Below are positions 26,218-41,500 of a DNA stretch of 64,000 bases, one piece after another; position 1 is the stretch's first letter, and every line of letters starts with the position of its first letter. The stretch lies in the NCBI RefSeq assembly GCF_021049305.1, contig NZ_CP088081.1, positions 682,001 through 746,000 on the forward strand, written 5' to 3'. The position numbers and the translations under genes are program-made. The notes under the pieces were generated by a model. The model worked only from the letters and a program-made list of their open reading frames with translations, had not been told where the DNA came from and ran no database searches. Source of the DNA: Ideonella dechloratans (GTDB lineage Bacteria; Pseudomonadota; Gammaproteobacteria; Burkholderiales; Burkholderiaceae_C).

Positions 26218-26242
26218 CGGTAGGGCGCGACCTTGTCGCTTT

Positions 26243-26258
26243 TGTCGCGACCGACACA
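26243..26258. promoter_or_regulatory. NifA upstream activator sequence of nifB
   Basis: TGTCGCGACCGACACA is a perfect TGT-N10-ACA, centre about 65 bp upstream of the nifB -24 element. Same TGTCG half-site as the nifV enhancer. Confidence 0.85.
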
Positions 26259-26283
26259 GCCCGGCGGGCATGCGACAAAACCG

Positions 26284-26296: not shown

Positions 26297-26313
26297 AAAA
26301 AGAAAAAAGCACC

Positions 26314-26329
26314 TGGCACAGCTCTCGCA
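26314..26329 (+). promoter_or_regulatory. Sigma-54 promoter of the nifB operon
   Basis: TGGCACAGCTCTCGCA has a perfect TGGCAC -24 block and GC at the exact 10-bp spacing (GG 26315-26316, GC 26327-26328); the -12 block is TCGCA, one base from TTGCA. It lies 36 bp before the nifB start and probably drives everything to 38558. Confidence 0.82.
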
Positions 26330-26364
26330 ATGGTGGGTTCACCTGCCACCACACGAGGTGCCCC

Positions 26365-27945
26365 ATGTCCGCCAACACCACGTTCGTATCGATCGGCGAT
26401 CTGAAGAAAGGTCGCCAAGCCGTCAGCGAAGTCGTCGAGACCGGAGGGGGCTGCGGCACCACCGGTGGCTCCGGAAAGTCGAGCTGTGGCTCATCGGGTG
26501 GGCCCGACGACATGCCCGCCGAGATCTGGGACAAGGTCAAGAACCACCCCTGCTACTCGGAAGAGGCCCACCACCACTACGCCCGCATGCACGTGGCCGT
26601 GGCCCCGGCCTGCAACATCCAGTGCAACTACTGCAATCGCAAGTACGACTGCAGCAACGAATCGCGCCCCGGCGTGGTCAGCCAGAAGCTCACGCCCGAG
26701 CAGGCCGTCAAAAAGGTGCTGGCCGTGGCCAGCGAGATTCCGCAGATGACGGTGCTGGGCATCGCCGGCCCCGGCGATTCGCTGGCCAACCCGAAGAAGA
26801 CCTTCGACACCATGCGCATGCTCCACGAGCAGGCGCCCGACATCAAGCTGTGCCTGTCCACCAACGGCCTGGCGCTGCCGGACCAGGTCGACGAGATCTG
26901 CAAGTACAACATCGACCACGTCACGATCACCATCAACATGGTCGATCCGGAAGTGGGCGCCAAGATCTACCCCTGGATCTTCTGGGACCACCGGCGCGTC
27001 ACCGGCGTCGAGGCCGCCCGCATCCTGCACGAGCGCCAGATGCTCGGCCTGGAGATGCTGACCGCCCGCGGCGTGCTCACCAAGATCAACTCGGTGCTGA
27101 TCCCCGGCATCAACGACGAGCACCTGATCGAGGTGAACCGCGAGGTCAAGAAGCGCGGTGCCTTCCTGCACAACATCATGCCGCTGATCTCGGAAGCCGA
27201 GCACGGCACCGTGTTCGGCCTGACCGGCCAGCGCGGCCCGACCGCCCAGGAGCTCAAGGCCGTGCAGGACGCCTGCATGGGCGGCGCCAACCTGATGCGC
27301 CACTGCCGCCAATGCCGCGCCGACGCGGTGGGCCTGCTGGGCGAGGACCGCTCCGAGGAATTCACCCTCGACAAGATCGAGGAGATGGAAGTCGTCTACG
27401 ACCTGGACAAGCGCAAGGCCTACCAGGACCAGGTCGAGGCCGAGCGCCAGGCCCAGGTGGCGGCCAAGGCCGACGCGCTGGCCGCCGCGGCCAACGACGA
27501 TGGCGTGGACCCGGACATGAAGGTGCTGGTCGCCGTGGCCACCGAAGGCCATGGCAAGGTCAACCAGCACTTCGGCCACGCCACCGAATTCCAGATCTTC
27601 GAGGTCAGCCAGGCCCAGGCCCTGTTCGTCGGCCACCGCCGGGTGGACCTGTACTGCCAGGGCGGCTACGGCGAGGACGAGCAACTGCCCTCCATCGTCA
27701 AGGCCATCAACGACTGCCATGCGGTGCTGGTGGCCAAGATCGGCGCCTGCCCGCGTGACGAGCTGGCCGCCGCCGGCATCGAGCCGGTGGACGCCTACGC
27801 CCACGAGTTCATCGAGAAGGCCGCGCTGTCCTGGTTCAGCGGCTACCGCCAGCGCATCGCCAGCGGCGAACTCGTCCACCAACCGCGCGGTGACGCGCAG
27901 ATCCGGCAGGGTGCCTTCACCGGCACCGCCGAAGCAGCCGCCTGA
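26365..27945 (+). CDS. nifB: FeMo-cofactor core synthase NifB
   Basis: 526 residues. Radical-SAM cysteines C83-x3-C87-x2-C90 (CNIQCNYC) bind the SAM cluster; further conserved cysteines ([14 protein letters not shown]) ligate the K-clusters. The SPASM-free core runs to about residue 340. A charged linker (360-390) leads to a NifX/NafY-like dinitrogenase-cofactor domain ([27 protein letters not shown] ... [17 protein letters not shown]), so this is the full-length, two-domain NifB. It fuses two 4Fe-4S clusters with carbide insertion to give NifB-co. Ser/Gly/Cys-rich N-terminal segment (20-45) is usual in proteobacterial NifB. First gene of the long operon. Confidence 0.97.
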
Positions 27946-27998
27946 GCCTTGACGCCAGCGACGGCCCTTTCCCCAGCCCCCAGCCAAGGAGTCCCATC

Positions 27999-28193
27999 AT
28001 GGCCCTGAAGATCATCGCCTCCATGTGCACCGGCTGCTCCGCCTGCGAGCCCGAGTGCCCCAACGTCGCCATCCGTGAGAAGGGCGGCACCTTCATCATC
28101 GACCCGGCCAAGTGCACCGAATGCGAAGGCCAGTTCGACGCGCCCCAGTGCGTGTCGGTCTGCCCGGTGGACGGCTGCATCAAGCCGGCCTGA
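27999..28193 (+). CDS. fdxN: 2[4Fe-4S] ferredoxin FdxN
   Basis: 64 residues. Cluster motifs [12 protein letters not shown] and [18 protein letters not shown] show the 8-residue insertion typical of the nifB-linked, bacterial-type 2[4Fe-4S] ferredoxins (FdxN/FrxA). It supplies electrons, probably to NifB or to nitrogenase. Strong AAGGAG ribosome site. It follows nifB by 53 bp and is followed by a 215-bp gap full of repeats. Confidence 0.95.
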
Positions 28194-28204
28194 ATGGTGC
28201 ACCC

Positions 28205-28226
28205 GGCATCGCGCTTGCGCGATGCC
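28205..28226 (+). other. Perfect hairpin just after fdxN
   Basis: GGCATCGCGC and GCGCGATGCC form a 10-bp perfect stem with a TT loop, 12 bp after the fdxN stop. No T-run follows, so it is more likely a 3'-end stabiliser or processing site within the operon message than a full terminator. Confidence 0.55.
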
Positions 28227-28278
28227 ACCCGCCGGGCGGGTGCGTGGGCCGCTTGGGGCGGCCCGGCGCTGGCCCACG
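28225..28278. repeat. 54-bp repeat, copy A
   Basis: Identical to copy B at 28316-28369, same strand, 37 bp between copies. Each copy holds an internal CCCGCCGGGCGGG palindrome and a hairpin CGTGGGCC ... GGCCCACG around the core GCTTGGGGCGGCCCGGCGC, which also occurs in the fixC-fixX gap with a different stem. No coding frame. Confidence 0.85.
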
Positions 28279-28315
28279 GGAGATGGGGCACCCGGCCCCG
28301 GGCTGAACCCCGGGA

Positions 28316-28369
28316 CCACCCGCCGGGCGGGTGCGTGGGCCGCTTGGGGCGGCCCGGCGCTGGCCCACG
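28316..28369. repeat. 54-bp repeat, copy B
   Basis: Exact direct repeat of 28225-28278. The pair plus the hairpin at 28205 fill the 215-bp gap between fdxN and the hesB-like gene. They may be recent duplications of a REP-like element. Confidence 0.85.
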
Positions 28370-28408
28370 CCGTCCGCTTTCGACTGTCTTTTGAATGACG
28401 AGCTGAAC

Positions 28409-28789
28409 ATGATCCTGCCCAACGTCACTGTCACGCCCGCTGCGGCCAAGTTCATCCGCCGCATGGTGCGCTTCTCCGATCACCCCGCCGGCGGCATGCG
28501 CCTCCTGGTGACGCCGGGCGGCTGCTCCGGCTACAGCGCCGAGTTCTCGGTGCTGGCCGCACCGATGGACGGCGACGCCGAGCTGATGGTGGGCGATGTG
28601 CGGGTCTTCCTGCCGGCCGAAAGCCGCATGGTGCTCGACGGCGTCACGATGGACTTCAGCGAAAGCCCGACCCATTCCGGCCTGAGCTTCTTCAACCCGG
28701 CGGCGGCGCCCTGCGCCTGCTCCAGCTCGGGCGATGCGGCCAAGCCGGCGCAGGCCACGGTCTCGCTGGACTCGCTCAAGCGCCACTGA
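28409..28789 (+). CDS. Nif-associated A-type (HesB/IscA-like) Fe-S protein
   Basis: 126 residues from ATG 28409; an ATG 15 bp earlier ends at once and the longer open frame crosses the repeats. VTVTPAAAKFIRRMVRF, TPGGCSGYSAEFSV and the C-terminal PCACSSSG give the A-type C...C-x-C pattern. SPTHSGLSFFNPAAAPCACSSSG is typical of the HesB-like proteins encoded next to nifB/fdxN. It probably carries Fe-S clusters to NifB or other nif targets. Third A-type gene of the window, the most divergent. Confidence 0.9.
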   Translation: MILPNVTVTPAAAKFIRRMVRFSDHPAGGMRLLVTPGGCSGYSAEFSVLAAPMDGDAELMVGDVRVFLPAESRMVLDGVTMDFSESPTHSGLSFFNPAAAPCACSSSGDAAKPAQATVSLDSLKRH

Positions 28790-28828
28790 GGCGCCGTTCC
28801 GCGTCCTCCCGCACACCAGGCGTCCACC

Positions 28829-29443
28829 ATGAGCACCGCCACCACCGGCACCCTGGGCGTGGATTTCGATGATGCCGTGCTCGGCCAGGGCCTGCCGCCC
28901 TTGGCCGAGGCCGCACTGCGCGAGGCGGGAGATCACCGAGGCGACGCACCCCGGGCCATGGCCGCGCTGATGCGGGCCCAGACCCTGGCGCCGGAGCACC
29001 CGGCGGTGCTGATCGCGCTGTACCGGCACCATTTCTATGGTCACCGGCTGAGTCCGGCGCGCGACGTGGCTCGCCGGGCCCTGGTGGCCGGTGCCACCGC
29101 GCTGGGCCTGCCCGCCTGCTGGCGCGAGGTGCCGCTGCAGCCGCTGGCGGGCGCACGCGATGAGCCGGTGACACGTTTCTACCTGTTCACGCTCAAGGGC
29201 TATGCCTACCTGAGCCTGCGTCTGGGGGACGACACCGAAGCGCGCGACGCCCTGGCCTTGCTGCGCCACCTGGACCCGGACGACCGCGTGGGCGGGGCCC
29301 TGGTCGAGGCGGTGCGCCAGCGTGCGCTGGTGGGCGACGACCCGGACGAGGACGCGCCCAGTATCCCGCCGGCCTTTGGCGCGGCGGCCTGGGCCCGCCT
29401 GGCCCCCCGGCCACCGGGAGCGCGCCCTTCGGCCCCGGCCTGA
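28829..29443 (+). CDS. Nif-associated TPR-like protein (paralogue of 11627-12121)
   Basis: 204 residues, helical, TPR-like: AMAALMRAQTLAPEHPAVLIALYRHHFYGHRLSPARDVARRAL, FYLFTLKGYAYLSLRLGDDTEARDALALLRHLDPDDRVGGALVEAV. Conserved Trp/Cys in ACWREVPL. Clearly related to the sigma-54-driven gene at 11627. It lies between the hesB-like and LRV genes in the nifB operon, an arrangement I recognise from other diazotroph nifB regions. Its molecular role is unknown; a protein-protein adaptor in cofactor or Fe-S delivery is inference. Confidence 0.82.
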   Translation: MSTATTGTLGVDFDDAVLGQGLPPLAEAALREAGDHRGDAPRAMAALMRAQTLAPEHPAVLIALYRHHFYGHRLSPARDVARRALVAGATALGLPACWREVPLQPLAGARDEPVTRFYLFTLKGYAYLSLRLGDDTEARDALALLRHLDPDDRVGGALVEAVRQRALVGDDPDEDAPSIPPAFGAAAWARLAPRPPGARPSAPA

Positions 29444-29455
29444 AGCGAGATCGCC

Positions 29456-30295
29456 ATGAACGCCGCCGCCCTGCACCCTGTCCACCGCGCCCCCGCGGGT
29501 GACATCCCCCTGCGGGACTGGCAGGGCCAGCCGGTCGATTGCGGCCCCTGCCCGCACCGGGCGCTGCGCGACGCCGGCGGCTGCGAGCCTGGCCACAGCT
29601 GCATGCAGGACGCCTACGCCCGCCGCATTGACCGCTTCTTCCGCACCCACCGCGACCTGGCCGGCCAGCACCTGGACCATCCGTACTTCGAGGTTCGGGC
29701 CATCGCCGCGCGCTACGTCGACATCTTCCAGCTCGGCCCGCTGCGCCAGGACCCGGACGAGACGGTGCGCCTGCAGGTGGCCCTGCGCGTGCCGCAGCGT
29801 CTGCTCTCGCCGATGTGCGATGACCCGCACCGCGAGGTCCGCATCCGCGTGGCCCAGCGCATCGACACGCCCGAACTCAGCCGCCTGATCCACGACGCCG
29901 ACTACGAGGTCCGCACCGTGGTGGCCCGCCGCCTGCCCCTGGCCCTGCTGCCCCTGCTGGCCGGGGACAACGACGAGCAGGTGCGCCGCGTGGTGGCCGA
30001 GCGGCTGGAGATGCCGGCACTGTGGCGCCTGGCCCAGGACCCTTCCGACCGGGTGCGCCGCACGGTGGCCGAGCGGGCGCCGCTGCCCCTGCTGTCGGCC
30101 TTCCTGGCCGACCCCGACTGGGCGGTGCGTTGGACCGTGGCCCACCGCGCCGACACCCGCCAGCAGCGCGACTGGCTGCTGCGCCTGTCCGAAGACGCCG
30201 ACCCCGAGGTGCGCGCCCAGGCGCTGGAGCGCCTGGCCGAACCCACGCCCTTGTCCCTGCCCCCAGGAGAGCCCCATGGCGGACATCGCCCGTGA
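29456..30295 (+). CDS. LRV protein: [4Fe-4S] domain plus leucine-rich-repeat-variant helical repeats
   Basis: 279 residues. An N-terminal four-Cys cluster domain, DCGPCPHRALRDAGGCEPGHSCMQD, is followed by about eight repeats of 24 residues: the unit is like DPDETVRLQVALRVP-xx-LL, repeated as DPHREVRIRVAQRI, DADYEVRTVVARRLP, DNDEQVRRVVAERL, DPSDRVRRTVAERA, DPDWAVRWTVAHRA. This is the LRV architecture first described from the Azotobacter vinelandii nif region. It probably binds proteins in Fe-S delivery; function not established. Its last 20 bp overlap the start of nifZ, so the two are translationally coupled. Confidence 0.93.
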   Translation: MNAAALHPVHRAPAGDIPLRDWQGQPVDCGPCPHRALRDAGGCEPGHSCMQDAYARRIDRFFRTHRDLAGQHLDHPYFEVRAIAARYVDIFQLGPLRQDPDETVRLQVALRVPQRLLSPMCDDPHREVRIRVAQRIDTPELSRLIHDADYEVRTVVARRLPLALLPLLAGDNDEQVRRVVAERLEMPALWRLAQDPSDRVRRTVAERAPLPLLSAFLADPDWAVRWTVAHRADTRQQRDWLLRLSEDADPEVRAQALERLAEPTPLSLPPGEPHGGHRP

Positions 30296-30611
30296 CGACG
30301 ACATCATCGAGATCGCCCTGCCGCCCCGCTTCGAGATGGGGGAGCGGGTGATCAGCCGCACCATCATCCGCAACGACGGCACCTACACCGGCAAGGACAT
30401 CGGCGAGCTGCTGGTGAACAAGGGCGACATCGGCTACGTGCGCTCGATCGGCACCTTCCTGCAGCAGTTCTACATCTACGCGGTGGAGTTCACCGGCTCG
30501 GGCCACCAGGTGGGCATGCGGGCCAAGGAGCTCTGCACCCTGGACCACCTGCCCGAGGAGGTGCTGGCGCAGCTGGGCGAAAGGGCCCGGCAGCTGGCCG
30601 ATCTCCGCTGA
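30276..30611 (+). CDS. nifZ: NifZ, P-cluster assembly protein
   Basis: 111 residues. FEMGERVISRTIIRNDGTYTGKDIGELLVNKGDIGYVRSIGTFLQQFYIYAVEF is diagnostic NifZ. NifZ acts as a chaperone in forming the second P-cluster of the MoFe protein. The start overlaps the LRV gene by 20 bp; AGGAGAGCCCC precedes the ATG. A second, shorter NifZ-domain gene follows after 37 bp. Confidence 0.95.
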   Translation: MADIARDDDIIEIALPPRFEMGERVISRTIIRNDGTYTGKDIGELLVNKGDIGYVRSIGTFLQQFYIYAVEFTGSGHQVGMRAKELCTLDHLPEEVLAQLGERARQLADLR

Positions 30612-30648
30612 CCCTGTCTTCCCCCTTCACGCCCTCAGGAGTCTCACC

Positions 30649-30936
30649 ATGATGGAACCCGCCCAACCCAAGTACGACTGGGGCCAACGCGTGCGCGCGG
30701 TGATCGACCTGGTCAACGACGGCAGCTTCCCCGAGGCCGCCGAGGGCGAGCTGCTGGTGCCCGCCGGGGGCATTGGCGAGATCGTCAACGTCGGCATGCA
30801 CACCGAGGCCAATGTGCCGGTCTACCTGGTCGAGTTCGGCCCGCGCCGGGTGCTGGGCGTGCTGGAAGACGAGATCGAGCTGGACGTGCCCGGCGCCCCG
30901 CACAGCGCCCCGGCACCGGCGGACGAGGTGGCGTGA
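30649..30936 (+). CDS. Second NifZ-domain protein
   Basis: 95 residues. KYDWGQRVRAVIDLVNDGSFPE, LLVPAGGIGEIVNVGMHTEANVPVYLVEF is the NifZ beta-domain again, matching the order GxRV ... GDIGxVxxIG ... Y.VEF in the neighbouring nifZ. Tandem nifZ genes suggest division of labour or a heteromeric chaperone. It ends TGATG, so its stop overlaps the start of the next gene by one base and translation is coupled. Confidence 0.88.
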   Translation: MMEPAQPKYDWGQRVRAVIDLVNDGSFPEAAEGELLVPAGGIGEIVNVGMHTEANVPVYLVEFGPRRVLGVLEDEIELDVPGAPHSAPAPADEVA

Positions 30937-31352
30937 TGGCCAGCGCCTCCTGCTCCGGCCGCCCGCCAGGCTCATCCGACGAGCCCGCGCGGCCCGCCGA
31001 CAGCGGCAGCCTGGTCGGTGGCCAGGTCTTCGTGCTGGACCGGGTGCGCATCGAGGTCGCGCTGGAGCAGCGCAGCCGCTACAAGTACGTCCACCCCCGC
31101 GTGCTGCGCGAGGGCCTGGGCTGGAAGGTGGTCAGCCCCAACTGCTCGCGCAACATCGACCGCGAAGGCGGCGAGATCGACATCGCCTGGCTGGTGCCCA
31201 CGCAGACGCCCGACAGCGGCGTGCCCGGAGCCTGGCTGCTGCATGCCCGCGACCACGTCCACGGCTGCTGGGTGCTCAAGCAACGCGCGCCCACCCTGGC
31301 CGCCGCGCTGGACACCCTGCTGCGCGACGAAGCGCGCGACTACTGGGTCTGA
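30936..31352 (+). CDS. Conserved nif-operon protein, DUF3024-like
   Basis: 138 residues from ATG 30936, which overlaps the previous stop. After a Gly/Ser/Pro-rich head of about 28 residues, it reads YVHPRVLREGLGWKVVSPNCSRNIDREGGEIDIAWL and ARDHVHGCWVL, ending DEARDYWV. The pattern (R-Y-VxPR-LREG-W-VVSPN-SRNID-GGxIDIA-L ... DH-xxxW) resembles DUF3024-type small proteins as I recall them; this is by memory, unverified. Function unknown. One transcript with nifZ genes and nifS. Confidence 0.7.
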   Translation: MASASCSGRPPGSSDEPARPADSGSLVGGQVFVLDRVRIEVALEQRSRYKYVHPRVLREGLGWKVVSPNCSRNIDREGGEIDIAWLVPTQTPDSGVPGAWLLHARDHVHGCWVLKQRAPTLAAALDTLLRDEARDYWV

Positions 31353-31370
31353 GAACGGGGAGGGCCCACC

Positions 31371-32543
31371 ATGATCGACCTGGACCACAACGCCACCACC
31401 CGTCCGCTGCCGGCCGTGGTGCAGGCCCTGGTGCGGGCCATGGAGACCGGCTGGGCCAATCCCTCCTCGGTGCACGCCGCCGGCCAGGACGCCCGCCGGG
31501 CGCAGGCCGAGGCCCGGGCCCGCGTGGCGGCCCTGCTGGGCTGCCAGCCGGCCGAGCTGGTGTTCACCAGCGGTGCCACCGAAGCCAACCACCAGGCGGT
31601 GCTGGGGGCGCTGGCCCGCGGCCGTGCGCTGGGCCGCACCCGCCTGCTGCTCTCGGCCGTCGAGCATGCGGGCCTGCTGGGCCTGGCCGAGCGCCTGCGG
31701 CGCGAGGGCACGCCGGTCGACCTCATCCCGGTGGATGGCCAGGGCCGGCTGGACCTGGACGCCGCCGCCCGGCTGATCGGGCCGGACCTGGCCCTGCTCA
31801 GCGTGATGGCGGCCAACAACGAGACCGGCGTCTGCATGCCCCTGGCCGAGCTCGCGGCCCTGGCCCGCGCGCACGAGGTGCCCTTCCATGTGGATGCGAC
31901 CCAGGCAGTGGGCAAGTCCACGCTGCGCTTCGCCTCCAGCGGCGCCGACCTGTGGTCCTGCGCGGCCCACAAGCTGCACGGCCCGCAGGGCGTGGGGGCC
32001 CTGGTCGTGCGCAAGGGCCTGGCCTGGCCGGCGCTGATCGAGGGCAAGCAGGAGCGCAAGCGTCGGGGCGGCACCGAGAACGGGCCGGGCATCGCCGGCT
32101 TCGCCGCGGCGGCGGACGCGATTTCCGCCACCTTGAACGAGGACCTGGGCCGCATGAGCGCCCTGCGCCAGACGCTGGAACAGGGCCTGCTGGCCTTGCA
32201 CCCCGCCGTCGTGCTGCTGGGGCAGGGCGCGCCGCGCATCGCCAACACCGTCTGCGTGCGCTTCGGCGAACGCGACGCCGAACAGGTGCTGGGCAAGCTC
32301 GAGCGCGCCGGCGTGCGGGCCAGCAGCGGCGCGGCCTGTGGCGCCGGCAGCACCCAGCCCTCGCACGTGATGCTGGCCATGGGCCTCACGCCGGTGCAGG
32401 CCAAGGCCGAAATCCGCTTCTCGCTGGGGCGCGACACCACGGCCGATGACATCGCCCAGGCTCTGGCCGCCGTGCGGGCCCAGGTGCTGCCGCTGCTGCT
32501 CGAGGACCACCCGATCTCCCCTGTGTTGGCCACCCCGGCCTGA
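31371..32543 (+). CDS. nifS: NifS-like cysteine desulfurase
   Basis: 390 residues. IDLDHNATTRPL, SGATEANHQAVLGA, LLSAVEHAG, VMAANNETGVCMPL and FHVDATQAVGKS lead to the PLP lysine in CAAHKLHGPQG. The persulfide Cys is in SSGAACGAGSTQPSHVMLAMGL, a shortened NifS-type loop unlike the [16 protein letters not shown] of IscS. It belongs to group I desulfurases of the NifS branch, distinct from iscS at 12405, and lacks the IscS C-terminal tail. No full-length nifU is adjacent. It should supply sulfur for nitrogenase clusters. Start 18 bp after the DUF gene with GGGGAGG. Confidence 0.9.
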   Translation: MIDLDHNATTRPLPAVVQALVRAMETGWANPSSVHAAGQDARRAQAEARARVAALLGCQPAELVFTSGATEANHQAVLGALARGRALGRTRLLLSAVEHAGLLGLAERLRREGTPVDLIPVDGQGRLDLDAAARLIGPDLALLSVMAANNETGVCMPLAELAALARAHEVPFHVDATQAVGKSTLRFASSGADLWSCAAHKLHGPQGVGALVVRKGLAWPALIEGKQERKRRGGTENGPGIAGFAAAADAISATLNEDLGRMSALRQTLEQGLLALHPAVVLLGQGAPRIANTVCVRFGERDAEQVLGKLERAGVRASSGAACGAGSTQPSHVMLAMGLTPVQAKAEIRFSLGRDTTADDIAQALAAVRAQVLPLLLEDHPISPVLATPA

Positions 32544-32575
32544 CAGAACCTTTTGACCCATCCCCAGGAGTTCCC

Positions 32576-32788
32576 ATGAAAGTCATGATCCGCCGAAGCG
32601 CCGCTGGCATCCTGTCCGCCTACGTGGCCAAGAAGGACCTGGAGGAGCCCATCGTCTCGCACGAGAAGCCCGACCTCTGGGGCGGCACCGTGACCCTGGC
32701 CAACGACTGGGTGCTGGCCCTGCCGGAGATGCCCGAGGGCACCAGCCTGCCGATCACCGTCGAGGCCCGTCGCCTCTCCGGCGACTGA
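32576..32788 (+). CDS. nifT: NifT/FixU family protein
   Basis: 70 residues, the usual size. MKVMIRRSAAGILSAYVAKKDLEEPIVSHEKPDLWGG, TVTLANDWVLALPE are diagnostic of NifT/FixU. It is usually next to nifHDK, but here sits in the nifB operon. Its deletion has little effect in studied species, so its role is unclear. AGGAG ribosome site five bases from the ATG. Confidence 0.93.
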   Translation: MKVMIRRSAAGILSAYVAKKDLEEPIVSHEKPDLWGGTVTLANDWVLALPEMPEGTSLPITVEARRLSGD

Positions 32789-32802
32789 GCGGGGAGCCCG
32801 CC

Positions 32803-33084
32803 ATGAACGCCACCGCCGACGTGAGCACCCGCGCCGCCTCGCTGTCCGAGGCCATCGCCCTGGCCGACAGCGCCAACACCGTGCGTGAGGCGGCCCTGCT
32901 GCTGCGCGAGCGCTTCGCCCCGCTGCGGGTGATCGTGGTCGACGCCTTCGACATGCGCGGCGAGACGCCGGCCGCCGTGGGCCAGCGCCGCCTGCTGTGG
33001 GGCGCCGTCAGCGACGGCCACTGCTGGCAGGTCAGCGCCGATCTCTCGGCCCTGTCGGGCTTCTATCTGGCCGACCAGGCCTGA
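32803..33084 (+). CDS. Small conserved nif-operon protein, function unknown
   Basis: 93 residues, soluble. The core is EAIALADSANTVREAALLLRERFAPLRVIVVDAFDMRGETPAAVGQRR, LLWGAVSDGHCWQVSADLSALSGFYLAD. One helical half and one beta half; a single Cys. I do not recognise a named family with confidence; small proteins of this kind occur in betaproteobacterial nif operons. It lies 14 bp after nifT with GGGGAG ahead, and 25 bp before the DegT-like gene, so co-expressed. Confidence 0.75.
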   Translation: MNATADVSTRAASLSEAIALADSANTVREAALLLRERFAPLRVIVVDAFDMRGETPAAVGQRRLLWGAVSDGHCWQVSADLSALSGFYLADQA

Positions 33085-33109
33085 CCCCCACCCCTCGAAA
33101 GCCGCCGCC

Positions 33110-34396
33110 ATGAACTCGCCCGCCACCCTGGACCCCGAAGCCCACGTCACCCCGGTGCCCGGTGGCAATGCCGAGGGCAGCGACCCCTTCGCCGCCATCG
33201 GCGCGGATGGTCTGGTGGCCGACGAGCGGCCCGAGAGCGATGACCTGCTGGGCGACGACTGGATCGTGCTGTCCGATCCCGACCTGTCCGAGCTGGAGCT
33301 CAAGCTGGTGGAGACGGCCATGTCCGGCTCGCGCCTGACCGCCGGCCCCATGGTCGAGCGCTTCGAGCGGAGTTTCGCCCGCTGGCTGGGGCGGGCCCAT
33401 GCCGTCTCGGTGGCCAGCGGCACCCTGGGCACCTGGCTGGCGCTGCGGGCCCTGGGCATCGGCCCGGGCGACGAGGTCATCGCCTCGCCCCACGGCTGGC
33501 ACCAGGTGGCGCAGGCGGTGAGCCTGGCCGGCGCCACGCTGGTGTTCTCCGACATCCACTACTGGACCGGCTGCCTGGACCCGGTGCGGGCCGAGGCCCG
33601 CATCACCCCGCGCACCAAGGCCATCCTGGCCGGCAATGTCAACGGCCACCCGGCCGCCTGGGGCCCGCTGCGCGCGCTGGCCGACCGCCACGGCATCGCC
33701 CTGATCGAGGATTCCACCGAGGCCCTGGGCTCGCGCTACCAGGGCCGCAAGGTCGGCAGCTTCGGCGACATCGCGGTGTTCGACTTCTCCCAGCCCAGCG
33801 CACTGGCCTGCGGCGACGGGGCCATGGTCGTCACCGACGACGAACGCCTGGCCATCGAGCTGCGCTACCTGCGCCAGCGCTCCATCAAGGACCGCAACTC
33901 GCTGTCGGTGGGCGCGCGGGTGCCGCTGCAGGCCGGCATCAGCGAGCTGACCGCCGCGATGGGCGTGGGCCAGCTGGCCCGCATCGACGAGCTGCTGGCG
34001 CGCCGCAAGGTGGTCGAGGCCTTCTACCGCGACCTGATGAACAGCTTCGAGGGCATCAAGCCGCCCTACATCGCCGACGACGTGGACGAGGTGCACTGGA
34101 TGGTCTGGCAGGTGCACCTGGGCACCCGCTTCACCGCCAGCGCGCGCAAGCAGATCGTCGACGACCTGAACCGCGAGCACATCGAGGCGGCGCCCTTCTG
34201 CAAGCCGCTGCACCAGCAGTTCTTCTACCAGCAGCAAGGCTGGAAGCGGGGCGACCTGCCGCTGGCCGAGCGCATCGGCGACCGCGCCCTGGCGCTGCCC
34301 TTCCATGCTCTGCTCGACGAGGACGCGGTGCGCTTCATCGTCGGCGCCCTGAAGGACATCGCCACCAACATCGGTGCCGGCGTGCCCATCTACTGA
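33110..34396 (+). CDS. DegT/DnrJ/EryC1-fold protein lacking the PLP lysine
   Basis: 428 residues with a whole DegT/StrS aminotransferase fold: ELKLVETAMSGSRLTAGPMVERFERSFARWLGRAHAVSVASGTLGTWLALRALGIGPGDEVIASPHGW, NVNGHPAAWGPLRALADRHGIALIEDSTEALGSRYQGRKVG. The active-site segment is F224-D-F-S-Q-P-S230-A-L-A-C-G-D-G-A. In family members this is F-S-F-xx-x-K-x-L-xx-G-E-G-G with K forming the PLP Schiff base, so here Lys is Ser230 and the Glu is Asp. It cannot be an ordinary aminotransferase; ColD-type dehydratases with His at that place show such changes are possible. An unconserved acidic N-terminus of about 50 residues precedes. Shares an operon with nifT and SIR2-like genes. Confidence 0.88.
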   Translation: MNSPATLDPEAHVTPVPGGNAEGSDPFAAIGADGLVADERPESDDLLGDDWIVLSDPDLSELELKLVETAMSGSRLTAGPMVERFERSFARWLGRAHAVSVASGTLGTWLALRALGIGPGDEVIASPHGWHQVAQAVSLAGATLVFSDIHYWTGCLDPVRAEARITPRTKAILAGNVNGHPAAWGPLRALADRHGIALIEDSTEALGSRYQGRKVGSFGDIAVFDFSQPSALACGDGAMVVTDDERLAIELRYLRQRSIKDRNSLSVGARVPLQAGISELTAAMGVGQLARIDELLARRKVVEAFYRDLMNSFEGIKPPYIADDVDEVHWMVWQVHLGTRFTASARKQIVDDLNREHIEAAPFCKPLHQQFFYQQQGWKRGDLPLAERIGDRALALPFHALLDEDAVRFIVGALKDIATNIGAGVPIY

Positions 34397-34421
34397 TCTG
34401 AACCCCCACCGGGAGACGCCC

Positions 34422-35267
34422 ATGACCTTCACCACCCTGGACCACCTGCCCGACGACGTCGCCGCGGGTCTGATCGCTGGATCGCTCTCGCCCTACCTGG
34501 GCCCCGGCATGCTCAGCCTGTGCGCCGACCTGCCGGTGCCCGGCGACCCGCTGGCCCTGGCGACCGTGCTGACCACCCGCAACAGCGTGCCCGGCAAGAT
34601 CAAGAACCGCCTGACCCAGGCCGCGCAGTTCATCGAGAACTTCAAGCACCGCAAGACCCTGGTCAGCGGCATGGACCTGGCCTATGCGGCCCTGCCGGCG
34701 CCCAGCGCCTTGCACCGCTGGGTCGCCAGCCTGAAGACCCCGCTGATCGTCGACGCCTGGTACGACGACACGATGCGCGGTGCCCTGGGCGCGCGCGCCG
34801 ATTGGGCCGAGGTGCAGGGCCTGTCGCAGAGCGAACACTTCGGCACCTGGTTCGGTTGGTACGGCGCCGATGGCCAGCCGCTGACCGAGGAGCCGGTGGA
34901 CGTGGCCACCGTGTTCTACAAGCCCTGGGGCGGCCACCTGCCGGCCAGCAACTACCTGGTGTCCGACTCGGACCACGTCGAGGTGCTGACCGAGATCGAC
35001 ATCCAGACGCCCATCCCGCCGGTGGTGCAGGCGCGCCGCGCCAAGCTGGGCTTCGTGTTCCTGGGCTGCCGCTTCAACGACCAGCTGCCGCGCACCTTCG
35101 CCCGCCAGATCATGAAGCGCTCCGGCGGCCCGCACTACGCCATCCTGCCCGATGCGCCCACCCGCATGGAGGCCCGCTTCCTGGAGGAGCAGGGCATCAC
35201 CCGCATCGCGCTGCCGCTGGCCGAGGTGGCCGCGCAGCTCACCCGGGGCGTGGCCCTTGCGGCCTGA
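34422..35267 (+). CDS. SIR2-like protein in the nif operon
   Basis: 281 residues from ATG 34422. LIAGSLSPYLGPGMLSLC begins the domain where SIR2 proteins have the NAD-binding GAGxS loop. VLTTRN, FIENFKHRKTLVSGMDLAYAALPAPSALHRWVASLKTPLIVDAWYDD and FVFLGCRFNDQLPRTFARQIMK resemble the SIR2_2 branch of prokaryotic SIR2-like NADases and binders. The classic His and GAG of deacetylases are not obvious, so it may bind a nucleotide without sirtuin activity. Members of this family appear beside nif genes in some proteobacteria as I recall. Role unknown. 25 bp after the DegT-like gene. Confidence 0.7.
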   Translation: MTFTTLDHLPDDVAAGLIAGSLSPYLGPGMLSLCADLPVPGDPLALATVLTTRNSVPGKIKNRLTQAAQFIENFKHRKTLVSGMDLAYAALPAPSALHRWVASLKTPLIVDAWYDDTMRGALGARADWAEVQGLSQSEHFGTWFGWYGADGQPLTEEPVDVATVFYKPWGGHLPASNYLVSDSDHVEVLTEIDIQTPIPPVVQARRAKLGFVFLGCRFNDQLPRTFARQIMKRSGGPHYAILPDAPTRMEARFLEEQGITRIALPLAEVAAQLTRGVALAA

Positions 35268-35306
35268 GCCCTCTTTCACCCCCAAGACCCCCAAGAGGAG
35301 AAGACC

Positions 35307-35615
35307 ATGAGCACCCTGACCATCCTGCCTTCCGGTGCCACCCTGGACGTGAGCGAAGGCGCCAACCTGCTGCAGACCCTGCTGGCCGCCGGCGAGAAGC
35401 TGGTGAGCAAGTGCGGCGGCAAGGCCAGCTGCGGCGCCTGCCATGTGTTCATCAAGGAAGGGCGAAAGGGCGTTTCCAAGATGACCCCCGAGGAGAACGC
35501 CAAGCTCGACAGCCTGGTGGGCGTGAGCAGCAAGTCCCGCCTGGCCTGCCAGGTCAACATCCTGGGCACCGAGCCGGTGACCGTGGAGCTGCTGGGCGCG
35601 CTCTCGGGCTTCTGA
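35307..35615 (+). CDS. Plant/bacterial-type [2Fe-2S] ferredoxin
   Basis: 102 residues. Cluster ligands are in SKCGGKASCGACHVFI (C-x5-C-x2-C) and SRLACQVNI. The KMTPEENAKLDSL insertion and short length place it with the Isc/FdVI-type ferredoxins. Between the SIR2-like and FAD-oxidase genes, it is a candidate electron carrier for the oxidase or for nitrogenase-linked cofactor assembly. Strong AGAGGAG ribosome site before ATG 35307. Distinct from the fdx at 17001. Confidence 0.93.
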   Translation: MSTLTILPSGATLDVSEGANLLQTLLAAGEKLVSKCGGKASCGACHVFIKEGRKGVSKMTPEENAKLDSLVGVSSKSRLACQVNILGTEPVTVELLGALSGF

Positions 35616-35649
35616 CCCCTTCTCCACCACCCTGTCCCCAGGAGGCCCC

Positions 35650-36873
35650 ATGGACAAGATGCTGGACGTGGCCATCGTCGGTGGCGGCGTGTGCGGGCTG
35701 GCGCTGGCGCACAGCCTGCAGGCCCGCCGCCTGGATTGGGCGCTGTTCGAGGGCCGTGATCGCCTGGGCGGCCGGGTGCTGACGGCCACCGGCGTCCAGG
35801 GCCAGCCCTTGGACCTGGGGCCCACCTGGTACTGGCCTGACCACCAGCCCTCGATGGCCCGGCTGGTGGCCGATCTGGGCCTGGAGACGGTGGCCCAGGC
35901 CGACGATGGCCGGGTGCTGTTGCTGGACCAGGCCGCCGAGCCCCCGGCCACGGTGGCCGTGGCCAGCGCTACGGCGCAGGACGGCGACGCCACCCTGCCG
36001 GCCCCGCCCGGGCAGGGCAGCCTGCACGGCGGCGCGCGTCGCCTGGCCGGTGGCATGGCCGCCCTGGTGGCGGCCCTGGCCCGACCGCTGCCGTTGACCC
36101 GGTTGCACCTGGGCCAGACCCTGCTGGCCGTGACCGACGCGGGCGACCATGTGCGCCTGTCGCTGCGCCTGGGCGGGCAGGAACACACGGTGCGGGCCCG
36201 CCGCGTCGTGCTGGCCCTGCCACCGCGCGTGGCCCAGGCCGGCCTGCGCTTCGAGCCGGCCCTGCCCGCCGCGGTGGACGAGGCCCTGCAGGCGCAAGCC
36301 ACCTGGATGGCCACCGCCGCCAAGGCCGCCGTGGCCTACCCCGACGCCTTCTGGCGGGCCGATGGCCACAGCGGCAATGCCTGGGTCACCCATGCCCAGG
36401 CGGTGCTGGCCGAGGTCTTCGACGCCAGCGGGCCGACCGGCGCCGCGCTGGCCGGCTTCAGCGCGTTGCCGGCGTCGCAGCGCCCGGCCTTCGCGCGCAG
36501 CATGCCGCTGCTGGTGGAAAGTCAGATGGCCATGCTCTTCGGCGAGGCCGCGCGCGACGGCGAGCTGCACTGGCAGGACTGGGCCGAGGAGGCCTTCACC
36601 TGCAGCCCGCTGGACCGCGCCAGCGAGGGCCAGGCCGCCCACCCCGGACCGGGCGCCGCCACCGACACGCTGCAGCTGCCGCAGTGGGACGGCCGGCTGA
36701 TGTTTGGCGGGGCCGAGACGGCCCAGCGCGGCACCGGCTACCTGGAAGGCGCGCTGGGCGCGGCGGCCCGGCTGCGCCACCTGCTGCCGCAAGCACCGCA
36801 ACCGGCCCACTCGCCCGAGGTCGTCAACGCCCATTTGCCGCGCCAGGCGGCTGCCGTCACGGGGGCCGCATGA
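35650..36873 (+). CDS. FAD-dependent amine-oxidase-like protein
   Basis: 407 residues. The N-terminal FAD motif is VAIVGGGVCGLALAHSLQARRLDWALFEGRDRLGGRV, then LDLGPTWYWPDHQPSMARLV (substrate-side Trp). HGGARRLAGGMAALVAAL and RRVVLALPPRVAQAGLRFEP are typical of flavin-containing monoamine oxidases, and the C-terminal FAD-closing segment is GRLMFGGAETAQRGTGYLEGALGAA. No export signal, so cytoplasmic. Substrate unknown. Its stop overlaps the start of the AAA+ gene by four bases (ATGA), so the two are likely translationally coupled. Confidence 0.85.
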   Translation: MDKMLDVAIVGGGVCGLALAHSLQARRLDWALFEGRDRLGGRVLTATGVQGQPLDLGPTWYWPDHQPSMARLVADLGLETVAQADDGRVLLLDQAAEPPATVAVASATAQDGDATLPAPPGQGSLHGGARRLAGGMAALVAALARPLPLTRLHLGQTLLAVTDAGDHVRLSLRLGGQEHTVRARRVVLALPPRVAQAGLRFEPALPAAVDEALQAQATWMATAAKAAVAYPDAFWRADGHSGNAWVTHAQAVLAEVFDASGPTGAALAGFSALPASQRPAFARSMPLLVESQMAMLFGEAARDGELHWQDWAEEAFTCSPLDRASEGQAAHPGPGAATDTLQLPQWDGRLMFGGAETAQRGTGYLEGALGAAARLRHLLPQAPQPAHSPEVVNAHLPRQAAAVTGAA

Positions 36874-38558
36874 AGCTCGCGCTGGAACGGGCCCAGGTGC
36901 AGGCCCTGAGCGAAGCTTTCCCGCGACTGGCCATGCTGCAGGACCAGCTGCGCTACACCCACCGGCTGGAACTGCCCTGGCAGCAGCTGCAGCTGGGCGA
37001 ACTGACCTTCCTGGGCAACCTGTACCAGGCCCAGGGCGCCGAAGCGCGCCACCGCCAGCTCCAGGGCCTGCTGGCCGCCTTGCAGGACGAGGGCCCGCGC
37101 TTTGGCGAGGACGACGAGCTGGAGCAGCTGCTGCCGGCCCTGGCGCACTACCTGATCCAGGGCGCCCAGCGCGGCTGGCTGTTCGCCACCTCGCCCGGCG
37201 GCCGGGCGGCGGCCTGGGTGGTCACCCGGCTGGACTATGTCTCGGGCTCCAACGAGGAGATGGGCAAGGTGCTCATCGAGCTCAAGGCCCTGCTGCGCGC
37301 CGGCATCGTCAGCACCACGGTGCGCATCGTCGAGGCCGATCTGCCCGGCCATACGGTGGCCGAGATCCTGGCGGCCAAGGGCCTGCTCAAGGAGACGCCC
37401 GCGCTGCTGGCGGCCTACGACGCCATGGCCGAGCGCTACATCGACTGGCGCGGCCGCTATGGCGCGCAGTTCTGCGGCCAGGGCATCGGCTTCGTGGCCG
37501 AGGACCCCAGCGCCACCCACCGCGACACCGACTGGACCCGCAAGGACCAGGTGGTGCTGTCGGCCTCGGGCCAGCCCGCGCGCCTGGTCAATGACGAGGG
37601 CATCCTGCCGCCGCGCAGCGCCACGCTGGACAGCACCGGCGACATCCTGGGGCCCTATCTGCGCAAGGCCGCCAAGAGCAACCGCTACGCCGCCGAGGAC
37701 GAGGTGCAGGCCGAGCGTGCGGCCCAGCCCGAAGGCCTGTTCACCCAGCTGCCGGTGCAGGGCTTTCTGTTCCTGTTCCACCTGGAACTGCACCAGCATC
37801 TGTGGGTGCATGTGGACGACTTGACGCCCTGCGTCTACCAGCCCGAGCTGAAGACCCGGCTGGTGCTGCCGCCCGAGCAGACCGACCTGATCGACATCCT
37901 GACCGCCGAGATGGATGTGCTGATGGACGACATCGTGGCCGGCAAGAGCGGCGGCACCACGGTGCTGTGCGCCGGCCCCCCCGGCGTGGGCAAGACGCTG
38001 ACCGCCGAGGTCTATGCCGAGATCATCGGCCGGCCGCTCTACCGCGTGCATTCGGGCCAGCTGGGCCTGAACGTGGCGACCATGGAGACCGCGCTGAAGG
38101 AGGCGCTCACGCGCGCCCAGCGCTGGGGCGCGGTGATGCTGATCGACGAGGCCGATGTCTACATCAAGCGCCGCGACGACAACCTGGCCATGAACGCGGT
38201 GGTCGGCGTCTTCCTGCGGGTGCTGGAGTACTTCAACGGCCTGCTGTTCCTGACCACCAACCGCATCGACGACATCGACGAGGCCATCGTCAGCCGCTGC
38301 ATCGCGCTGATCCGCTACCAGGCGCCCGACGAGGCGGCGCGGGCCCGCATCTGGCGCGTGATGGCCGGCCAGTTCGGCCTGGCGCTGGACGCGGCGCAGA
38401 TCGACTGGCTGGCCCGCCACTACGCCCAGGCCAGCGGGCGGGACATCAAGGGCCTGGCCAAGCTGGTGACCACCTACTGCCACCACAAGCAGGTGGCGCC
38501 CTCACGCGAGGTGTTCGAGCGCTGCGCCGTCTTCCGCGGCTTCGAGCCGGGCGCCTGA
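36870..38558 (+). CDS. AAA+ ATPase with a large unknown N-terminal region
   Basis: 562 residues from ATG 36870. Residues 1-360 match nothing I know: helix-rich, with LRYTHRLELPWQQLQLGELTFLGNLYQ, then WLFATSPGGRAAAWVV and LFTQLPVQGFLFLFHLELHQHLWVHVDDL. AAA+ domain: Walker A GPPGVGKT (369-376), Walker B VMLIDE (422-427), FLTTNRIDDIDEAIVSRC as sensor 1 and Arg-finger region, then a C-terminal helical lid. It resembles classical-clade AAA proteins acting on protein partners, not ClpX. As last gene of the nifB operon, coupled to the FAD oxidase, it may remodel a nif protein; this is inference. Only 11 bp separate it from the convergent pilY1. Confidence 0.85.
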   Translation: MKLALERAQVQALSEAFPRLAMLQDQLRYTHRLELPWQQLQLGELTFLGNLYQAQGAEARHRQLQGLLAALQDEGPRFGEDDELEQLLPALAHYLIQGAQRGWLFATSPGGRAAAWVVTRLDYVSGSNEEMGKVLIELKALLRAGIVSTTVRIVEADLPGHTVAEILAAKGLLKETPALLAAYDAMAERYIDWRGRYGAQFCGQGIGFVAEDPSATHRDTDWTRKDQVVLSASGQPARLVNDEGILPPRSATLDSTGDILGPYLRKAAKSNRYAAEDEVQAERAAQPEGLFTQLPVQGFLFLFHLELHQHLWVHVDDLTPCVYQPELKTRLVLPPEQTDLIDILTAEMDVLMDDIVAGKSGGTTVLCAGPPGVGKTLTAEVYAEIIGRPLYRVHSGQLGLNVATMETALKEALTRAQRWGAVMLIDEADVYIKRRDDNLAMNAVVGVFLRVLEYFNGLLFLTTNRIDDIDEAIVSRCIALIRYQAPDEAARARIWRVMAGQFGLALDAAQIDWLARHYAQASGRDIKGLAKLVTTYCHHKQVAPSREVFERCAVFRGFEPGA

Positions 38559-38569
38559 GGCCCGGACGC

Positions 38570-41500
38570 TCACAGCCCCTCGAACAGCTCGCGCCACCAC
38601 AGGCGCCGGGTGCCGCCGCCGCTGCCCGCGGTGGGGATTTGCGCCGTGGTCGTGCTGCCGTCCGACAGGCTGATCACGCCGATGATCTTGCCCGAGGTGG
38701 TCTTGACCAGCGAGGCGGCGCTGCCCAGCGCGGTGTCGGTCAGCATCACGCCGGCATTGCTGGCGCCGCTCACCGTGCCGCCGGTCTTGTAGTCCAGGTA
38801 GTTGAGATAGCTGGCCCCCCCGGTGGCGCAGGCGCTGGTGGTGGTGGGCACGTTGGAGACGACCACCAAGGTGCCGCTGACCAGGGTGGGGTCGGTGGTG
38901 ATGCGCTCGGCGGTCTCGGGCAGGTCGACGAACCAGCCGTTCATGGTGCTCAGGTCCACGGTGAGGCTGTTGCTGGCCACGGTGCGCACCCCGCTGCTGT
39001 CCACCAGGGTCTGCTGGACGAAGCAGTTCGTCAGGCCCGTGGCACTGCAGGCGCTGGCCCGCGGGTTGGCATACAGCGCGGTGCTGGGCGAGCTGCCGGT
39101 CAGCGGGTCCTTGAAGGCGTAGAGGCTTTCCTGCTGGGTGGTGGAGACGTCGGTCACGCCCAGGTACTCGCCGGTGCCCACGTAGACCATGTGCTTGCCG
39201 CTGGCGTAGCCCAACTCCGGCGCGGCGGTCACCGGCTGGCGGTTGCCGCTGGTGTCGGCCAGGGTGGCCAGCAGCTGCACCTTGGCCGTGCCGCCGCTGG
39301 CGGTCAGCGCGCTGATGTCGAAGCGCCAGACATTGCCATAGAGGTCGCCGCCATAGACCTGCTTGGCGGTGTTGTTGGTGGCGGTGTCCACCCAGGCCGC
39401 CAGCCGGGCCAGACCGCTGGGGCAGGGGGCGGTGCTGCAGCCGGCCACCGTGGCGCTGCTGCTGCCCATGCCGTTGTCGATCTTGCTGATCACGGCCCCG
39501 GTCTTTGCGTTCAGCACCCAGATGACGCCGTGGCCGCTGCCGGGCGAAACGTTGTTGTAGCCCGAGCTGACGATGACCGCCCAGGTGCCGTCGGACAGCT
39601 TGGTCACGATGGGCGCGCCGTAGCTGTAGCCCAGGTCCGCATCGCTGATGTAGCCGGTGCCGGCGCTGGTGTCGCTGGTGAACTCCCACAGCACGGCAGG
39701 CGAAGCCGGGTTGGTCACGTCCAGGGCGTAATAGCCGCGGCCACCCTGGCCCAGGCCGCCCACCAGGATGGTGTGCCAGGTGCTGTCGTAGTAGACGTCG
39801 GCGCGGGTGGTGCTGCCGTCCACGAAGTTCACGTGGTTGGAGGCGTACTTCTTGTCGGCCAGCTTGTAGAGCTTGGGCAGCAGGATGGAGGGCACGTAGG
39901 CCCAGCTCTCCGCGCCGGTGCTGGCATTGAAGGCGTGCAGCATGCCGTCGTTGGCGCCCACGTAGACCATGGCCGTGCGGCCGGACTGGGCCGTCTTGTA
40001 GCCGCTGTAGCCCGCGTCGGTGTAGCTGAAGCCGGGCTTGGCCACATAGACCGACTGGTTGTTGACGATGTCGCCCAGCACATGGGTGCGGGGGACGTAG
40101 TAGGCGGTGCTGGTCGAGCCTTCGTTGCTGCGGTCGCCGCGCAGGAAGTTCACCAGGTTCACGCCGCCCACGCCGGTGGTGGTGCCCGCCGTGCTGCTGT
40201 CCACCTGGGAGGCGGTGGGCAGGCAGGTGGAGCCCGAGGAGCACATCTGCGACAGGCTGCCGATGGCGGCCACCTTGAAATAGGCCTGCTGACTGCTGTT
40301 CAAGGTGTCGTAGGTGAAGGCGATGCGCGCGCCGGTGCTGGGGTTGTAGGTGTAGATGTTGCGCGATGCCCAGGCGGTGTTGTCCAGCAGCGGCGGGGTG
40401 GTCTGGGTGGTGCTGGAGCCGGCGCAGTCGTTGCCGGCGCCGGATTGCGACCAGTCGGGGGTGCTGCTCAGGGCGCCGGTGGCCGCATCGATGTCGTAGC
40501 GCACCAGTTCGCCAAACCACTTGGCCGAGCAGAAGGAGGTGGCGAAGACGTAGTTGCTGTCGGTGCTGGTCAGGTTGGGGGTGCTGGCGGTGGCCGAGGC
40601 CGAGTTGCTGGTGGCGGCCGACACCGCGTTGACGAAGTTGGTCAGGCCGGTCTTGAGTTCGGACGGGTTGGTGGCGCTGTAGTAGGCGCCGCGCCCGTTG
40701 ATGGCCGCGTGCCACAGATCGTCCACCGCCGTCTGGGTGTTGTTGACGGGCTTGGGCCAGTTGCAGGCGCCCGAGCTCTGCCAGGGACACACGCCGCTGC
40801 TCAACGTGCTGCTGCTGGTGACGGTGCCATTGGCCACGTCGTGGTAGTCGCCGCTGGTGGCCGAGGCGTAGTTGGGGTCGAACAGCATGTAGCCCGAGGC
40901 GCCCAGGCCCAGGGTGTAGGTGTACATGCGCTGCTGGCCGTTGGCGAAGCTGTTGCTGGAGACGTCGGTGCCGGTGCTGCGGTTGGTGGTGTTGCCGAAG
41001 GCGGATGAGCGGATGTCGGTGGCGTAGAAGTACTCGGCGACGTCGGCCAGCGTGTTGGACTGGCCGTTGCCGTCGTAGTAGGGACGCGACTCGCTGCCAT
41101 CGGTGTTGCCGATGGCCGTGCCGTCGATCTTGACGGGCGAGGCCGTCTCGTTCCAGTAGCCGTCGGTGGACAGCAGGGTGTAGTTGCGCTGGCAGGCGTA
41201 CTGCATCGGGTCGCTCGCGCTCACCCCGTTGATGCTGCTCTTCTTGCCTGCGAAGTAGAGCCCGGCCGTGTCCAGGGCGGTGCGCAGCGGCGTGGTGTTG
41301 TTGGGCTTGGCCGCGAAGAGCTTGGCGTAGAACTTGGACTTCTGGCCGCCGCTGGTGGTGGTGATGTCGGCGATGTCCAGGAAGTCGCTGCCGGTGTTGT
41401 TGTTGATGCTCATGTAGCCCAGCCGGTAGCTGGTGCCCAGGTCGATCATGGCCAGGCTGGCCGAGGTCTTCATCATCTGCACGCGCGTGTGGTAGTAGGC

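What the first reader, a model, noticed from the sequence alone, without database searches (positions are those of the whole stretch)
33110..38558. Candidate new nif accessory module: DegT-fold pseudo-enzyme, SIR2-like, ferredoxin, FAD oxidase, AAA+ ATPase
Five tightly spaced genes (gaps 25, 39, 34, then a 4-bp overlap) end the nifB operon. None has a textbook nif role, yet they contain nucleotide-binding (SIR2-like), redox (2Fe-2S, FAD) and protein-remodelling (AAA+ with a novel 360-residue N-terminus) functions. The visible promoter is the sigma-54/NifA one at 26314. This looks like an undescribed unit acting on a nitrogenase component or cofactor, perhaps a protective or repair device. Co-expression is inferred from layout.
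Basis: partly seen in the sequence, partly recalled or inferred. Interest (0 to 1): 0.85.

Follow-up and report, generated by a model that had tools for sequence, protein, structure and literature searches.

The report
Nitrogenase-linked AAA+ ATPase and pseudo-enzyme genes
The five genes at the end of this nitrogen-fixation operon are real and mostly found in nitrogen-fixing bacteria; two look like enzymes that kept their shape but lost their active site, and one is a well-preserved ATP-driven protein-remodelling machine whose role in nitrogen fixation I could not find described.

Summary
In detail: five genes at 33110-38558, with the stated gaps, close a 16-gene nifB run whose best sigma-54-like site is at 26314. 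The genes are nif-linked: nifD is in 45 of 50 tested AAA+ genomes against 41 of 396 background genomes; SIR2 is in 20 of 41 nifD genomes and 2 of 355 others. But they are not one fixed unit. DegT-SIR2-ferredoxin belong to an old nifB operon; the AAA+ belongs to a separate set; the FAD oxidase travels with either. All five stood together in 6 of 80 AAA+ loci. Two are conserved pseudo-enzymes: DegT lacks the PLP lysine in 18 of 18 orthologues; SIR2 keeps a ThsA-like fold but no sequence examined has both catalytic Asn and His. FAD and AAA+ keep their catalytic motifs. The AAA+ has a p97-type motor behind about 320 residues without Pfam match, and in some species a sigma-54-like site of its own. 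I propose a nif-dedicated protein-remodelling ATPase. The SIR2 gene was already known as NifA-regulated and dispensable in Mesorhizobium nodules; I found no paper on the AAA+ link.

The parts
26243..26258 (+). NifA-type upstream box TGT-N10-ACA
   Evidence: count in window not above chance, position before the nifB promoter is the argument
26314..26329 (+). sigma-54 -24/-12-like site TGGCAC-N5-TCGCA (one mismatch)
26365..27945 (+). nifB
   Evidence: 58-88% identical matches in SIR2-bearing nif loci, (label by eye)
27999..28193 (+). fdxN-like 4Fe-4S ferredoxin
28409..28789 (+). IscA/HesB-like protein
   Evidence: Fe-S_biosyn
28829..29443 (+). TPR-like protein (Pfam TPR matches below cut-off) of the conserved nifB operon
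29456..30295 (+). LRV-FeS4 protein
30276..30611 (+). nifZ (first)
30649..30936 (+). nifZ (second)
30933..31352 (+). DUF3024 protein
31371..32543 (+). NifS-like cysteine desulfurase (365 bits to the NifS model, under its cut-off of 531)
32576..32788 (+). nifT/fixU
32803..33084 (+). 93-aa protein, no Pfam family, present before DegT in some related operons
33110..34396 (+). DegT-fold pseudo-aminotransferase (PLP lysine replaced by Ser)
34422..35267 (+). SIR2-fold pseudo-NADase
35307..35615 (+). 2Fe-2S ferredoxin of Fer2 type
35650..36873 (+). short monoamine-oxidase-like FAD enzyme, active-site Lys kept
36870..38558 (+). AAA+ ATPase: unassigned N-terminal part (about residues 1-320) and p97/PAN/FtsH-type motor (about 320-560)

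Best explanation
The block is the junction of two nif-accessory layers, probably transcribed from the nifB sigma-54/NifA promoter. Layer 1 (DegT-SIR2-2Fe-2S ferredoxin) is the end of an old nifB operon; its two folded but apparently dead enzymes most likely act as binding or adaptor proteins (ligand or partner sensors) near Fe-S/FeMo-cofactor assembly, not as a transaminase or NADase. Layer 2 is a nif-dedicated AAA+ that binds a nitrogenase-related client through its N-terminal part and remodels it with ATP, with no protease domain in its chain. The FAD oxidase is a nif-linked redox gene that travels with either layer and is translationally coupled to the AAA+ here. Shown: nif linkage, conserved motor motifs, loss of catalytic residues, promoter pattern, AAA motor fold. 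Inferred: ring formation, client identity, remodelling, the adaptor role, the FAD partnership, and co-expression.
Against: The AAA+ is absent from 36 of 41 sampled nifD genomes, so nitrogenase does not need it in general. Only 34 of 80 AAA+ loci hold a core nif gene in the DNA held. 5 of 50 AAA+ genomes had no nifD match (all MAGs by title), and 2 of the 45 matches are under the cut-off. The M. loti SIR2 mutant was Fix+. G006 and G010 AAA+ genes lie among non-nif genes. FAD and SIR2 matches lie within 2 kb in 9 of the 36 FAD genomes (coordinates), and in 3 of these 9 (genomes of L075, L076, L097) the AAA+ stretch held shows no FAD, so the FAD-AAA+ partnership is not fixed. No client or interaction evidence exists. 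The N-terminal fold was not tested alone.
Confidence: 0.45

Rival explanations
1. One dedicated five-protein machine: DegT, SIR2, ferredoxin, FAD oxidase and AAA+ act together on one nitrogenase component.
For: Tight spacing here; the same five together in 6 of 80 AAA+ loci, Burkholderiales by record title (taxonomy recalled); in 49 of 50 AAA+ genomes a SIR2 gene exists somewhere; FAD and SIR2 lie within 2 kb in 9 of 36 FAD genomes.
Against: 20 SIR2 neighbourhoods of other genomes hold no FAD or AAA+ gene; 2 nifD genomes have AAA+ without a SIR2 match; in some related loci SelO-like and 4Fe-4S/CCG genes stand between FAD and AAA+.
Confidence: 0.12
2. Redox or oxygen-protection set: the FAD oxidase and ferredoxin consume oxygen or rereduce Fe-S proteins, and the AAA+ extracts oxidatively damaged nitrogenase proteins.
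For: Recurrent redox-type neighbours of AAA+ (FAD, 4Fe-4S/CCG, glutathione-transferase-like, luciferase-like, nitroreductase-like by Pfam of one representative each, Rieske-like by eye); a bacterial globin stands near nifH in this genome. Named AAA+ hosts include methanotrophs, Bradyrhizobium and Acidithiobacillus (their aerobic habit is recalled).
Against: No oxygen data; no survey of hosts by oxygen habit was made; the M. loti SIR2 mutant had no symbiotic phenotype.
Confidence: 0.25
3. DegT and SIR2 proteins are enzymes of altered chemistry rather than dead ones, for example a lysine-free PMP-dependent DegT dehydratase.
For: The fold and the EDS[TS]EA segment, recalled as cofactor-binding in the family, are kept; lysine-free DegT dehydratases with His are recalled from the literature. 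The SIR2 His is kept in 9 of 27.
Against: The DegT Lys position is Ser, Ala, Leu, Gly or Gln, not one fixed residue; the SIR2 His position varies.
Confidence: 0.1
4. Anti-phage genes that strayed into a nif operon (SIR2-type NADase plus AAA+).
For: Nearest structures of the SIR2 model are ThsA, KomC and DSR2; weak PADLOC hits of the AAA+ motor to IetA and TRIP13.
Against: SIR2 has no PADLOC hit at E<=0.01 and lacks the NADase residue pair; the IteA equivalog scores 41 bits against a cut-off of 510; genome linkage is to nifD.
Confidence: 0.03

Closest known systems
NifA-regulated sirtuin-like gene msi351 of Mesorhizobium loti (PMC3538637)
   Same: Ends a nifB-fdxN-nifZ-fixU operon under a NifA promoter; sirtuin-like protein next to fixU/nifT
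   Different: No DegT, FAD or AAA+ gene in that operon as listed there; whether msi351 shares the lost residues was not tested here
ThsA / KomC / DSR2 SIR2-domain NADases
   Different: Catalytic Asn replaced by Trp and His not conserved
Perosamine synthetase and other DegT aminotransferases (3bn1, 3dr4)
   Same: Fold family PF01041; E about 3e-54
   Different: Schiff-base Lys absent; invariant C-terminal N-x-GAG-x-x-IY tail
p97 D1 / PAN / FtsH AAA motors
   Same: Motor fold and ATPase motifs
   Different: No protease domain matched in the chain, N-terminal 319 residues without Pfam match
Monoamine/putrescine oxidases
   Same: FAD-binding motif and active-site Lys
   Different: 407 aa against about 450-530; about 80 fewer residues between the two matched stretches
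Rubisco activase-like AAA+ remodellers (recalled)
   Same: Idea of an AAA+ dedicated to one metabolic enzyme
   Different: No shared N-domain tested; client unknown here

Membership tests
DegT_DnrJ_EryC1 (fold family) | Pfam PF01041 match over the whole domain | tested here: met
   298 bits, residues 59-414
Active DegT aminotransferase | Schiff-base lysine | tested here: not met
   Absent in 18 of 18 nif orthologues, window included; position aligned with K of 3bn1
SIR2_2 / ThsA-like fold | SIR2 fold | tested here: met
Active SIR2 NADase or deacylase | Catalytic Asn and His both present | tested here: not met
   None of 32 sequences with letters at both positions has both (positions set by the ThsA alignment; 3 fragments of the 36 rows and 1 partial row left out)
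2Fe-2S ferredoxin (Fer2) | Fer2 match and four cluster Cys | tested here: met
   39 bits; four Cys in the window and in 20 of 21 aligned (read; L043 lacks one)
ISC ferredoxin (fdx_isc equivalog) | Score over 132 bits | tested here: not met
   60 bits
Flavin amine oxidase | FAD GxGxxG motif and active-site Lys | tested here: met
   20 of 20; Amino_oxidase 126 bits
Flavin amine oxidase | Oxidase activity, FAD bound | not testable with these tools
   needs protein
Classical AAA ATPase | Walker A, Walker B, sensor 1, arginine-finger region | tested here: met
   38 of 38
Classical AAA ATPase | Hexameric ring, ATP-driven remodelling | not testable with these tools
   needs protein
Known N-terminal domain of an AAA+ family | Fold match of residues 1-320 | tested here: inconclusive
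   Structure rows mostly span 319-559; no Pfam match
IetA/IteA anti-phage ATPase | Score over the equivalog cut-off of 510 bits | tested here: not met
   41 bits, motor region only
NifA-RpoN regulon | -24/-12 site and NifA box before the operon | tested here: met
   26314 and 26243, one mismatch, counts not above chance in the window
NifA-RpoN regulon | NifA-dependent expression of the block | not testable with these tools
   needs RNA or protein data from this organism

The most novel reading that the evidence does not exclude
A nitrogenase-dedicated AAA+ remodelase, the nitrogen-fixation counterpart of a Rubisco activase, with its own client-recognition domain and sigma-54 control, coupled to interchangeable redox partners and, in Burkholderiales, to two pseudo-enzymes that act as ligand-sensing adaptors for cofactor assembly.
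Probability: 0.25. Interest if true: 0.85.

Novelty: new variant of a known kind. Interest (0 to 1): 0.62.

Why it matters
If right, part of nitrogenase assembly or maintenance in many proteobacteria relies on an ATP-driven remodeller that nif gene lists, and engineering efforts built on them, may leave out. A 673-genome catalogue of 93 nitrogen-fixation genes has neither AAA nor SIR2 in its main text (term search in the text; supplements not seen). It also gives clean tests: one gene deletion and one pull-down.

Tried and rejected
Single five-gene unit: rejected on neighbourhoods. Defence genes: rejected. FAD oxidase as a common gene of the phylum: 18 of 396 genomes match at E<=1e-25, but only this genome and G363 reach E<1e-60; the other 16, of which 14 lack a nifD match, are a more distant subfamily (that search scored only 4 candidates a genome). 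Non-nif AAA+ relatives: G373, G195 and G191 match weakly (E 6e-10 to 1e-8), have no nifD match, and in G195 and G191 a hydrolase-like gene (label by eye) stands beside it; L066 and L067 (G195, G191) stand on a long branch away from the nif group in a quick tree rooted on them. G068 has strong AAA+ (interrupted by stops) and SIR2 matches but no nifD match; G194 has SIR2 beside nifB, nifZ and nifT but no nifD match. Greedy longest-ORF calling failed at 70% GC and was replaced by codon-position GC scoring and tblastn. A regular-expression count of the SIR2 Asn position over P0121-P0240 was unreliable and is not used. Paper searches listed no paper that I recognised as being on this AAA+; I opened only seven papers, by term search, and subscription journals are mostly not held.
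Full report
What is there. They follow, on the same strand, nifB, fdxN, an IscA-like gene, a TPR-like gene, LRV-FeS4, two nifZ genes, DUF3024, a nifS-like gene, nifT and a 93-aa gene, sixteen genes in all. The next gene is PilY1 on the opposite strand. A sigma-54-like site with one mismatch lies at 26314 and a TGT-N10-ACA box at 26243; as counts these patterns are not above chance in the window, and a second such box lies inside the SIR2 gene. On the plus strand the 26314 site is the only one of its quality at 26000-39000, and no sigma-70-like site was found there. A good terminator-like stem follows nifA at 26186, before the operon; a weak one lies at 33045, just before DegT. The genome's nifD lies about 52 kb beyond the window end.

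Are the genes nif-linked? In a sample of 396 genomes of the phylum, nifD passes its cut-off in 41. The SIR2-like protein matches in 22, of which 20 have nifD; a profile search of the 41 again gave 20. The AAA+ N-terminal part matches strongly in 6, of which 5 have nifD; 3 more matches are weak and have no nifD match; a profile of it gave 5 of the 41. The nif-type DegT profile gave 9 genomes at E<=1e-179, all with nifD, then a drop to 1e-72; none of 38 nifD-negative genomes that I chose had it. The nine are themselves rows of that profile, so the point is only that no others were found among the 79. A scan of genome contigs for the AAA+ gave 225 relatives, 80 kept, among them Ideonella, Azohydromonas, Sphaerotilus, Roseateles, Methylococcus, Methylobacter, Methylocella, Beijerinckia, Bradyrhizobium, Thiobacillus, Sulfuriferula and Acidithiobacillus. 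Of 50 of these 80 genomes, 45 have nifD at E<=1e-100 and 43 over the cut-off (one of the other two is a fragment, one may be a related protein); the five without (loci L079, L085, L101, L116, L131) are MAGs by title. SIR2 matches in 49 of the 50, the FAD oxidase in 36 (weakest E 2e-67).

One unit or two? Around SIR2 in 20 other genomes (11-20 kb each), 19 stretches hold nif genes; DegT is in 8, the ferredoxin in 6, and neither FAD nor AAA+ in any. In G363 the AAA+ is 47 kb from SIR2 and the FAD gene far off. The order nifB-fdxN-IscA-TPR-LRV-nifZ-nifZ-DUF3024-nifS-nifT-93aa-DegT-SIR2-ferredoxin recurs whole in L040 and L041 and with variations elsewhere, for example Methylocaldum L082 and Bradyrhizobium L132. 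Around the AAA+ in 80 loci, 34 hold a core nif gene in the DNA held, FAD is in 19, and all five are together in 6 (L072, L074, L077, L079, L121, L122). From the coordinates, FAD and SIR2 lie within 2 kb in 9 of the 36 FAD genomes, 3 of which have no FAD in their AAA+ stretch. So FAD travels with either side. Other recurrent AAA+ neighbours are an unassigned 196-aa protein (23 loci), a 126-aa protein (21), a glutathione-transferase-like protein (20), SelO-like (14) and 4Fe-4S/CCG (11) proteins (labels from one representative each). The AAA+ start is overlapped by 4 nt by FAD in L072, L074, L081 and L109 as in the window, by the 126-aa gene in 9 loci, and by the 4Fe-4S/CCG gene in 2 (78 loci tested). 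In the 350 nt before the AAA+ of 77 loci (L073, L107 and L123 left out) there are 16 sigma-54-like sites, against about 2 expected from the rest of the same DNA; some of these loci are near relatives, so the P value is overstated. So the AAA+ seems to have its own RpoN-type promoter in some lineages and to ride in other operons in others. I conclude that two nif-accessory layers meet here.

Literature. M. loti msi351, 'prokaryotic sirtuin-like', ends the NifA-promoted nifB-fdxN-nifZ-fixU operon; its insertion mutant was fully effective (PMC3538637, passages). Z. mobilis ZMO1821 is a SIR2-like gene of the nif cluster (PMC8594446, passages). R. capsulatus Rcc03262, SIR2 family, was not found in a nifA1-nifA2 mutant (PMC6925177, table passage). 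A Rhodovulum nif operon lists a SIR2-like protein after nifT (PMC9412634, figure legend). I found no paper on the AAA+ or the nif-type FAD oxidase in nif clusters (search listings 31, 32, 72, 75-77, 103, 104); the catalogue paper PMC12903952 has no AAA or SIR2 in its main text (term search, passages). The Azoarcus Tn-Seq paper (PMC9769520, passages) and the bog-lake paper (PMC7341956, passages) gave nothing on these genes in the passages seen.

Mechanism. Shown: linkage, promoter pattern, conserved motor, lost catalytic residues. Inferred: the AAA+ forms a ring and remodels a nitrogenase-related client chosen by its N-terminal part; a coupled redox gene serves the same client; DegT and SIR2 act as binding or adaptor proteins. 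The AAA+ cannot be essential to nitrogenase in general, since 36 of 41 nifD genomes lack it. A conditional role, such as recovery after oxygen or ammonium shock, fits the patchy spread, but is untested.

Noticed in passing
L071:5462-6052 (this genome, C1:795461-796051, minus strand): An unassigned 196-aa protein (no Pfam) stands between a DRAT gene and a bacterial globin near nifH; its family is in 23 of 80 AAA+ loci, in two of them directly before the AAA+.
   Followed up: partly
window 28225-28278 and 28316-28369: A perfect 54-nt direct repeat lies in the 215-nt spacer between fdxN and the IscA-like gene.
   Followed up: no
window 34971-35018 (SIR2 residues 184-199): A nearly unchanging EVLTEIDIQTPIP segment of the SIR2 protein is predicted with very low confidence over residues 184-195, like a binding loop.
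   Followed up: no
window 12324-23317: An isc-type cluster (cysteine desulfurase, IscU-like, Fe-S_biosyn, HSP70; labels partly by eye) leads into nifV, nifW and fixABCX; a similar isc-nifV-nifW order stands before the AAA+ in Methylococcus-type loci such as L088.
   Followed up: partly
L064 (G068): An interrupted AAA+ gene beside a gene similar to part of nifB (nifX-like by eye), in a genome with a SIR2 match but no nifD match, perhaps a loss of nitrogen fixation or an incomplete assembly.
   Followed up: no
window 23325-23780: Rubrerythrin/ferritin-like gene between fixX and nifA, with relatives in other nif loci.
   Followed up: no
L077, L079, L090-L092, L095, L126, L137: SelO-like and, in some, 4Fe-4S/CCG proteins recur near the nif AAA+; I did not look for papers on them.
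   Followed up: no
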